Source: [Haemophilus] felis
GTDB taxonomy: Bacteria; Pseudomonadota; Gammaproteobacteria; Enterobacterales; Pasteurellaceae
NCBI GenBank assembly: GCA_002015125.1
Contig: MUYB01000031.1
Coordinates: 1 to 44,472 of the forward strand
Direction: 5' to 3'
Length of the DNA: 44,472 nt
Part shown: one piece after another, positions 16,153 through 19,100 of the stretch
Layout of the letters: every line of letters begins with the position of its first letter
Numbering within the stretch: position 1 is the stretch's first letter
Translations under genes and position numbers: made by a program
The notes under the pieces: model-generated
The model's input: the letters and a program-made list of their open reading frames with translations, nothing else
Told to the model about the DNA's origin: nothing
Databases searched by the model: none

Positions 16153-19100
16153 ATGAACCCCAATCAATCAATCAATCAATCAATCAATCAATCAATCAAT
16201 CAATAAGATAACCCTTGCTCTAGCTATTTCAATAGGTACTTCTTTATTTTCTAGTGCGGTTTGGGCGGCAACTTGGACGTTGACGGAAAATAATAATGGT
16301 AGTGCCGGGCCAATGTGTATTGAGGGACAAAATAGCTGTAATGATTTAGAGCTACTTCTCGGAAAAGTAAATAATGGCGATACCATTATGCTTACAGGTC
16401 ATAATGTTTATTTAGCAAGAGGTCAGCAAGGTGCACAATTAGATAACAAAAAACTCGATATAAATAAACAAGTAACAATTAATGGCGGTGGGAATACGCT
16501 AAAAATCAATGCTAATGATATTAATCTAGGGGCTGATGTTGAAATTAACAATGTAAACTTGCAAGCACAAGGTTACTCTAGAACACAAGAAGAAAAAAAT
16601 GAACAGGTATTTTCTAATAATGCAACGGATACGTCAAATATCTATTTAAATGGATATAAACTGACATTAAATGCTGTCACTACAAATGATACTAGAAATA
16701 ATATAAAACCAAACATTATATTGGGTTCGTCCGCAGGAAAAGTAGACGAAAAACGTGGCGAACTGATGGTTACCAATTCAACCCCTGACACTAAATTTGC
16801 AAACGTTGTTGCAGGTTCTCATACTGGAGAAAACACTGGAATGCCTACTGTAAAAATATCTATTGATAAAGATATAATACAAGAGGGAGGAAAAATTTAT
16901 TTAGGAAATGGTGAGAATAAAGCCCCAACTCCTACACACGGTGTAAGTCTAACAATCCACTCAGGAAGTTTATCTCTGATAAAAAAAATAGATCAAAATG
17001 GAGTTGATAATGCCGATATAACCTTAAAGAACGTAAGTGCTGGTAGTGGAAAAATTCCAGTTAACAAATTGGCTAATTTAACATTAAATGGCTCAGAGGT
17101 TACCCTTGAGAATACGGAGATTACAGGAACGCTATCTCTTGAAAATGGTTCGACTCTCAATATTGAAAATCCCAATACCACTAGTTTAGGTTTTAGCGAC
17201 GAATCCGAATCTGTCTCTGTTACGATTAATAATGTTACAAGCAAAGATACAACCTCTAAAATTAGCGTATTAAACCCTAAAATCAATCTTACGATTTCGA
17301 ATTTCACAGGTAGCACATTACCTAAACTTTCAGAGAGAGATGCTGGTGAAAGCATTATCTCTCTTCCAAATGGATATAACTCACAGACTGATCGAGCTGG
17401 AAATATCACAATTACCCCACCATCTTCTACAACAGAAACAGTAGAGCCAGCGCCGTCCCCTGCCCCAGCTCCAGCAACACCACCAAAAACAGAAGAACCT
17501 AAACAAAATGAACCTTCACCTAAACCTTCAGAAGGTGAACAATCTAGCGATCAAAATGGTGAAGTAAACGAACAGGGACAAAATAATAACAACTCTTCTG
17601 CTCGCAGTGAAAATCAACCTGAACACAGTGATTCTAGCGCAAGTAATTCAAGCTCTGCCTCTGGTTCATCTAATAACGATTCACCTACGGGACAAGGTGG
17701 TGATGGTGCTACAATGCAGCCTAACGCTGGTGCAGGCACCCCTTCTACAACACCAGAAGCGAACCCTGACACAAGTCAGCCTAATGGATCTAGCCCAAGC
17801 GGTTCAGAAACACCTGCAGGGTCAAAAGAGACTGAAAATCAAAGTGGTTCAGATACGGGACAAGATGACCAAGCTACTCGTCAAGAAGATCCACAAACTA
17901 GCGATCAAGAAAACACTCATAGCTCAGCTGAAAATGACGGAAAAGAAAGTGCGGGTGAATCTCCAAAAGATTCAGAAACACCAAAACAGACTATTCCTGA
18001 TAATAATTCTCAGGGTGGTGGCAATGCAGTAGATACACAATCTAATCCACAAGATCCGCCTAAAGATGCTGAGAAGCCTAAAGAGCCGTCTAACACAGAG
18101 GGACAGGCCACTCTTTCACCACAACCAGCTCAACCAGCTGGTGAGAAACCGAAAGAAGATACAGAACCTAAAAAACCTGAAACTGCTGAACCGGCGCAAC
18201 CCTCAGAGCAGCCTGCTACACCACCAGCTCCAGAAGGAACACCTCCTGCACTAGCACCTGAAAAACCTGTTCCGCCAAAACCAGAACAACCAGCAACACC
18301 ACCAAAACCTGCTGCGCCAGTTGCGCCAGTTGCGCCAGCAAAACCAGCTGAGCCTTCTGCGGTAAATAAACAAATTTTCCAGGTTATTGATCGTTTGAAA
18401 AATTTAACTCACTTAACTAACAAACAAAAACAAGAAGTTGCAAACAAAACCGAACAAAGTTTACGATCCTTGGCGGAAGGTTATAGCAATTATGACTTTG
18501 CATTTAGCATTGATGCCACTCGTGTGGCAGAAGCACGTTTAAGTGCATTAGCTAACGTCAATGGTATCGAATCTGCGGATAATAACAGCGCATTTTTAAT
18601 GGACGCCGCACGTCGCGCCAAACCAATGCACAACTCTGTTTGGGTGAGCACTTCTGTAGGCGAGAAAAAAGGCGATATCACTCGTCGTACTAAAACCCTC
18701 AATCTTGGTGTTGACGAGCAATTTGGCAATGTGATTTTAGGTGTGTTCGCAAGTTATCTCGATCAAAGCAGTGGTAGAGATGGCTTTAGCAGTGAATTAA
18801 ATGGTTACGCCTTCAGCAGCTATGGTAAATACAGTCCACAAAACCATGATTTCACTTGGTTGTTGCAATACGGCAAAACCAAAGGTAGCCTCAATCGTAG
18901 TATTACTGGCGTAGTGAATAATTCAGCAGACGTGAGAAGTAAATTTGCTGCGGTGAAAGCAGAATACGGTTATCGCCTTGCTTTCGACCCTATGTACTTG
19001 CAAGTGAAACCATTCGCTGGCTTGATGTTCAATGTGGGCGAACAAAAACCGTTCACTGAAAAAAAAGGCAACTTGCCAGTATCTGTTGGCGCTATTAATG

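What the first reader, a model, noticed from the sequence alone, without database searches (positions are those of the whole stretch)
16153..16206. Autotransporter switched OFF by an 11-unit CAAT tract
The ATG at 16153 is followed within eight bases by eleven CAAT units. In this sequence the start frame ends at TAA 16204 after 17 codons, while the signal peptide and the 1000-residue frame continue from 16205 in another frame. With 10 or 13 units the ATG would join the signal peptide. With 12 it would stop soon after. So both alternatives to ON are stopped early, as in proven contingency loci. CAAT tracts are known in H. influenzae lic genes. A CAAT switch on an autotransporter with this passenger is not one I recognise.
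Basis: partly seen in the sequence, partly recalled or inferred. Interest (0 to 1): 0.85.

Follow-up and report, generated by a model that had tools for sequence, protein, structure and literature searches.

The report
CAAT-repeat switch on surface autotransporter
A bacterium related to Haemophilus felis carries a gene for a surface protein whose start is cut off from the rest by a stretch of eleven CAAT repeats, which looks like a typical bacterial on/off switch in the off position; it is a new example of a known kind of switch.

Summary
ATG 16153 is followed by CAAT x11 (16161-16204); its frame stops at TAA 16204-16206, and a 1,067-codon open frame (signal peptide, predicted beta-helix passenger, Pro-rich linker, PF03797 barrel) runs in another frame from 16205. 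That frame is closed upstream by TGA 16154-16156 and has no ATG/GTG/TTG before TTG 16280, past the signal peptide. In 200 first-order Markov sequences no tetranucleotide tract exceeded 17 nt.

The phase-switch reading is well supported. A [Haemophilus] felis protein with the same start and signal peptide (78% identity over 73% of the query) reads in frame through a shorter repeat-encoded run. Two other Pasteurellaceae autotransporters, unrelated beyond the barrel, carry CAAT tracts between start and signal core, both out of frame.

It is not Lav, the known GCAA-switched autotransporter: passengers show no significant similarity. It works like Lav and is a new member of a known kind. Switching, expression and function were not measured. 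New here are the host lineage, the CAAT unit on a classical autotransporter, a passenger that diverges while signal peptide and linker stay near-identical to the closest relative, and recurrence of the arrangement in the family.

The parts
16141..16146 (+). Shine-Dalgarno-like AAAGGA, 6 nt before the ATG
   Evidence: read from the sequence; inspection only
16068..16096 (+). sigma-70-like promoter match (TTGAAA-17-TAAAAT, 10 of 12)
   Evidence: 2 sites found on both strands of 15650-16300 against 1.4 expected in shuffles, so weak
16153..16206 (+). start codon and the 17-codon frame it opens, ending at TAA
16154..16156 (+). TGA overlapping the ATG; closes the autotransporter frame upstream
16161..16204 (+). 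CAAT x11 tract, perfect
16205..16267 (+). signal peptide core (21 residues, KITLALAISIGTSLFSSAVWA); recognised and cleavage site placed by eye
   Evidence: 21/21 identical in P0001 and 20/21 in P0002
16268..17434 (+). passenger, predicted beta-helix (residues 22-410)
17435..18364 (+). Pro/Ser/Glu/Ala-rich linker (18.4% Pro), no confident structure
18365..19408 (+). C-terminal translocator ending in Phe plus stop codon; Pfam PF03797 match at about 18671-19342
   Evidence: E 7.2e-30; barrel poorly modelled

Best explanation
This is a phase-variable classical (type Va) autotransporter in a [Haemophilus] felis-like Pasteurellaceae. Slippage of the CAAT tract during replication adds or removes 4-bp units and so shifts whether the ATG at 16153 is in frame with the signal peptide and the rest of the protein. 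The tract sits in the N-region of the signal peptide and encodes a hydrophilic NQSI run, so its length can vary without touching the exported part. In the sequence given the frames do not join: translation from the ATG ends after 17 codons and no exported protein is expected (OFF). When in frame the product should be a surface-displayed beta-helix on a Pro-rich stalk, probably an adhesin. Shown: tract, frames, intact downstream frame, barrel domain, natural in-frame relative with fewer repeat-encoded residues. Predicted: the beta-helix. Inferred: slippage as the cause, switching rate, surface display, adhesin role.
For: Perfect 44-nt tract, against a maximum of 17 nt in 200 first-order Markov sequences. 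Both non-joining frames stop soon after the tract. Downstream frame of 1,067 codons without an internal stop, ending in Phe, with PF03797 at E 7.2e-30. P0001 of [Haemophilus] felis begins MNPNQSINQSINKITLAL, that is the same start, a shorter run (7 units if the DNA is pure CAAT) and the identical signal peptide in frame. P0002 starts at the first residue after the tract. CAAT tracts lie between an ESPR-like N-part and the hydrophobic core of two other PF03797 autotransporters (L122, L123), both out of frame in their assemblies. Lav, with GCAA in front of its signal peptide, is a tested precedent: protein seen on western blot at one tract length and not at two neighbouring ones (PMC9022572, passages).
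Against: No reads and no second DNA copy of this gene were available; the unit number of P0001 is inferred from protein, and P0001 is 59% identical in the passenger core, so it could be a paralogue rather than an allele. None of 140 held Pasteurellaceae genomes has a close copy. An assembly error of one unit would change the ON/OFF call. Two out-of-frame copies out of two in L122/L123 fit a switch at rest but equally show no ON copy of those genes. No expression data.
Confidence: 0.88

Rival explanations
1. Decaying gene: the frame was lost once and the gene is a pseudogene whose repeat is incidental.
For: The only DNA copy seen is out of frame; P0001 and P0002 are both named partial.
Against: The 1,067-codon frame has no internal stop and a canonical C-terminal Phe; the repeat-encoded run of P0001 is in frame with an identical signal peptide; the tract is perfect, not eroded.
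Confidence: 0.05
2. Sequencing or assembly artefact: the true tract has another length and the gene is simply ON in the sequenced strain.
For: Tetranucleotide tracts are error-prone in assemblies; no reads were available.
Against: A 44-nt tract fits inside an ordinary short read; a wrong count would change the ON/OFF call, not the presence of a switch.
Confidence: 0.05
3. Graded rather than on/off control: the autotransporter is translated at some level by an internal start or by frameshifting on the repeat, and tract length tunes the amount.
For: TTG 16280 and non-standard ATT/ATA/ATC codons lie in the frame.
Against: TTG 16280 is past the signal peptide, so its product would not be exported; no ATG/GTG/TTG lies between TGA 16154 and 16280.
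Confidence: 0.04

Closest known systems
Lav / Las / AutB (Haemophilus, Neisseria)
   Same: Classical autotransporter with a tetranucleotide tract in front of the signal-peptide core; ON/OFF by frame; several passenger variants (PMC9022572 passages; Lav/Las-like loci L184, L185, L193).
   Different: GCAA instead of CAAT; no significant passenger similarity and only weak similarity in the barrel (best E 3e-5 in a 12-sequence database, 24% over 166 aa). The names of L184/L185/L193 are inferred from tract, barrel and genus, not given by a record.
CAAT-switched LPS genes licA, lic2A, lic3A (H. influenzae) and relatives
   Same: Same repeat unit and frameshift logic in the coding region (PMC2651432 passages; PMC13192263 passages).
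   Different: Those encode LPS enzymes. In the rows of the 16-genome H. influenzae table that the passages showed, CAAT stands at LPS genes, a family-8 glycosyltransferase and a SAM methyltransferase; lav is CAAG and YadA-type genes CAAG or CAAA (some rows were not shown).
CAAT-tract autotransporters of two unnamed Pasteurellaceae genomes (L122 in G087, 7 units; L123 in G116, 12 units)
   Same: CAAT tract just before the signal-peptide core of a PF03797 autotransporter; out of frame in the assembly.
   Different: They have an ESPR-like extended N-part (motif recalled) before the tract and no significant sequence similarity to the window protein (best E 0.05, barrel).
UpaB of uropathogenic E. 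coli (6bea)
   Different: 16% identity; no PDB sequence match at E <= 0.001; no repeat switch known to me (recalled). A shared fold does not show shared function.

Membership tests
Slipped-strand SSR contingency locus | Perfect tandem repeat with a unit not divisible by 3 in the 5' coding region | tested here: met
Slipped-strand SSR contingency locus | Non-joining frames stop early while the gene stays intact downstream | tested here: met
Slipped-strand SSR contingency locus | Unit number varies between strains | tested here: inconclusive
   One relative (P0001) with a shorter run, inferred from protein, possibly a paralogue
Slipped-strand SSR contingency locus | Reversible switching of expression in a population | not testable with these tools
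   needs colonies or reads
Classical (type Va) autotransporter | C-terminal PF03797 translocator | tested here: met
   E 7.2e-30, 105 bits against cut-off 26
Classical (type Va) autotransporter | N-terminal signal peptide and aromatic C-terminal residue | tested here: met
   read from sequence; signal peptide by inspection, no predictor was run
Classical (type Va) autotransporter | Beta-helical passenger | tested here: met
   by prediction only; Foldseek alone had no hit at E <= 0.001
Lav / AutB family | GCAA repeat tract in the ORF | tested here: not met
   CAAT here; GCAA per PMC9022572
Lav / AutB family | Homologous passenger | tested here: not met
   BLASTP against 3 Lav/Las-like proteins: best passenger match E 2.1 over 41 aa
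Lav / AutB family | Homologous barrel beyond the common PF03797 domain | tested here: inconclusive
   24% over 166 aa at best, E 3e-5 in a 12-sequence database
UpaB-like adhesin | Passenger homologous to UpaB | tested here: inconclusive
CAAT-switched LPS enzymes (lic type) | ORF encodes an LPS-modifying enzyme | tested here: not met
   PF03797 only

The most novel reading that the evidence does not exclude
H. felis carries a family of CAAT-switched autotransporters whose passengers are swapped or diversify fast between near-constant signal peptides and related barrels, so the cell combines on/off switching with antigenic variation; and CAAT tracts, known mainly as LPS switches, have been recruited repeatedly in front of unrelated classical autotransporters in Pasteurellaceae.
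Probability: 0.45. Interest if true: 0.55.

Novelty: new member of a known kind. Interest (0 to 1): 0.4.

Why it matters
It extends repeat-driven switching of classical autotransporters beyond H. influenzae and Neisseria to a lineage near a cat-associated species, suggests that one repeat unit serves both LPS and protein surface switches in the family, and gives a gene whose predicted ON/OFF state can be read from sequence alone. Annotation may miss such genes when they are OFF: this window's own protein was not among the hits of the protein search.

Tried and rejected
The window's own genome is not held, so other tracts and paralogues in it could not be counted. The first genome-contig scan, with the autotransporter, gave 41 pattern matches, none confirmed as a relative. 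The second, with the upstream DedA protein, gave 165 relatives, of which the best 80 were kept; best-segment identity was at most 87%, so the window's species is probably not in that collection. In the 37 of those 80 loci that I printed (L001-L037), none had a tblastn match to metK or to this autotransporter within the flanks held. Plasmid search: no match. In 140 Pasteurellaceae genomes the protein matched in 10, but only 2 (L081, L082) over the passenger, at 35-38%; the other 8 matched linker or barrel only. A family search with the L122 autotransporter found barrel-level matches in 3 other genomes at 22-28% identity; I did not check those for tracts. Membership in Lav was considered and rejected on tract and passenger. 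Foldseek gave no PDB match at E <= 0.001; the UpaB match comes from the second-look aligner, and absence of other families there proves nothing. The barrel was poorly modelled, probably because P0003 and P0004 in the alignment carry a different barrel. The SprT search used to name the organism returned the window's own cluster with its name hidden (P0007, 99%); among the 120 of 328 hits listed the next was 75%, so 'H. felis or very close' is inference. A search for relatives of L123 did not complete and I did not repeat it. Of 12 GCAA regions fetched, I compared only the three that looked Lav-like, and scanned a fourth that proved YadA-type.

Literature: search listings showed, by title and start of abstract, no CAAT-switched classical autotransporter and nothing on phase variation in Haemophilus felis; most subscription journals are not held. 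I read passages only of PMC2651432, PMC9022572, PMC13192263 and PMC3339403.

Full report
What is there. The sequence reads AAAGGA, six bases, ATG at 16153, AACCC, eleven perfect CAAT units (16161-16204) and AAG. The ATG frame ends at TAA 16204-16206 after 17 codons. The frame read from 16205 encodes a hydrophobic signal-peptide core (KITLALAISIGTSLFSSAVWA) and runs without an internal stop to TAA 19406-19408. Upstream this frame is closed by the TGA that overlaps the ATG, and it holds no ATG, GTG or TTG before TTG 16280, which lies past the signal peptide. The tract is the only tetranucleotide run of 4 or more units in 44,472 bases, and in 200 first-order Markov sequences the longest such run was 10-17 nt.

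Relatives. The first protein search returned 4 proteins at E <= 0.001, scoring the 7,990 candidates that share most words. P0001 and P0002 are named [Haemophilus] felis. P0001 begins MNPNQSINQSINKITLAL: the same start, a repeat-encoded run corresponding to 7 CAAT units, and the identical signal peptide in frame. This is the strongest single piece of evidence, with two limits: it was seen only as protein, and it may be a paralogue. P0002 begins at the first residue after the tract. By region, P0001 matches the window at 21/21 in the signal peptide, 194/328 (59%) in residues 22-355, 51/55 in 356-410, 296/310 (95.5%) in the linker and 47/53 in the first part of the barrel region; P0002 matches at 20/21, 150/321, 20/54, 81/231 and 40/55. 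In the closest relative the passenger thus diverges between conserved flanks, which suggests exchange or selection on the exposed part; P0002 does not show the conserved linker. Both records end early in the barrel region, so their barrels were not seen whole. A second search with the barrel region returned 4 proteins among 7,240 candidates. P0003 and P0004 share part of the passenger (34%) with no BLASTP match in the barrel; P0005 and P0006 share the barrel (55-56%) with only marginal passenger similarity (E 2e-3 and 3e-4). P0005 and P0006 do not start with an NQSI run.

Source. SprT, two genes downstream, matches a cluster with hidden name at 99%; among the 120 of 328 hits listed nothing else exceeds 75%. 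With the near-identical linker of P0001, the window most likely comes from H. felis or a very close species. Eleven AAGTGCGGT uptake motifs (3 on +, 8 on -) and none of ACAAGCGGT fit a Haemophilus-type lineage (the first motif is given for H. influenzae in PMC13192263; the other is recalled).

Is the arrangement unique? In 140 Pasteurellaceae genomes, 26 hold CAAT x6 or longer. I examined one tract locus per genome, 26 in all, taking the longest open frame that overlaps the tract or begins within 300 nt after it. These are 7 glycosyltransferase family 25, 4 choline-kinase (licA-like), 3 acyltransferase, 2 CST-I sialyltransferase, 1 HsdM-type methylase, 1 other methyltransferase, 1 restriction enzyme, 1 group-1 glycosyltransferase, 4 without a Pfam match at E <= 1e-5, and 2 PF03797 autotransporters. 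Genomes with more than one tract were not exhausted. In both autotransporters (L122, 7 units; L123, 12 units) the tract lies between an ESPR-like N-part (motif recalled) beginning at an ATG and the hydrophobic signal core, and the ATG frame ends shortly after the tract. They show no significant similarity to the window protein (best E 0.05, in the barrel), so CAAT tracts seem to have come to sit before the signal core of classical autotransporters more than once.

Comparison with known systems. Lav is the closest: a classical autotransporter with a GCAA tract, tested by western blot at three successive lengths (PMC9022572, passages). I took three Lav/Las-like proteins from 12 regions fetched by their GCAA tracts (names inferred). 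The window protein has no significant passenger match to them and only weak barrel similarity. CAAT itself is the classic unit of H. influenzae LPS genes (PMC2651432, passages; PMC13192263, passages) and is listed for a glycosyltransferase of Histophilus somni (PMC3339403, passages). So the mechanism is known, the unit is known, and the combination on this autotransporter family is new to the sources I could search (listings).

Verdict. Observation confirmed, interpretation supported. A new member of a known kind: a CAAT-tract, frame-switched classical autotransporter, predicted OFF in the sequence given. What remains unshown is actual switching, expression and function.

Noticed in passing
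L122:1405-4579 and L123:8482-10910 (- strand): Two autotransporters in other Pasteurellaceae, not detectably related to the window's, carry CAAT tracts (7 and 12 units) between an ESPR-like start and the signal core, both out of frame in the assemblies.
   Followed up: partly
window 21511-26958: Large (1,815 aa) Ig-like repeat and RTX-repeat protein, apparently a type I-secreted adhesin, close to the autotransporter with metK and sprT between them.
   Followed up: no
window 40016-44260: DNA methylase gene followed by a ResIII-type restriction subunit (type III-like pair); a run of eight G (41594-41601) lies just before the ATG of the second gene and may only serve as ribosome binding site.
   Followed up: partly
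P0001 and P0002 ([Haemophilus] felis): Both protein records break off in the early barrel region and P0002 starts right after the repeat; this could reflect assembly breaks at several loci that share barrel and tract.
   Followed up: no
window 15911-15940: Perfect 12-bp inverted repeat with 6-nt loop between dedA and the autotransporter; function unknown.
   Followed up: no
P0003/P0004 and P0005/P0006: These relatives share mainly the passenger or mainly the barrel with the window protein, which points to exchange of domains among these autotransporters.
   Followed up: partly
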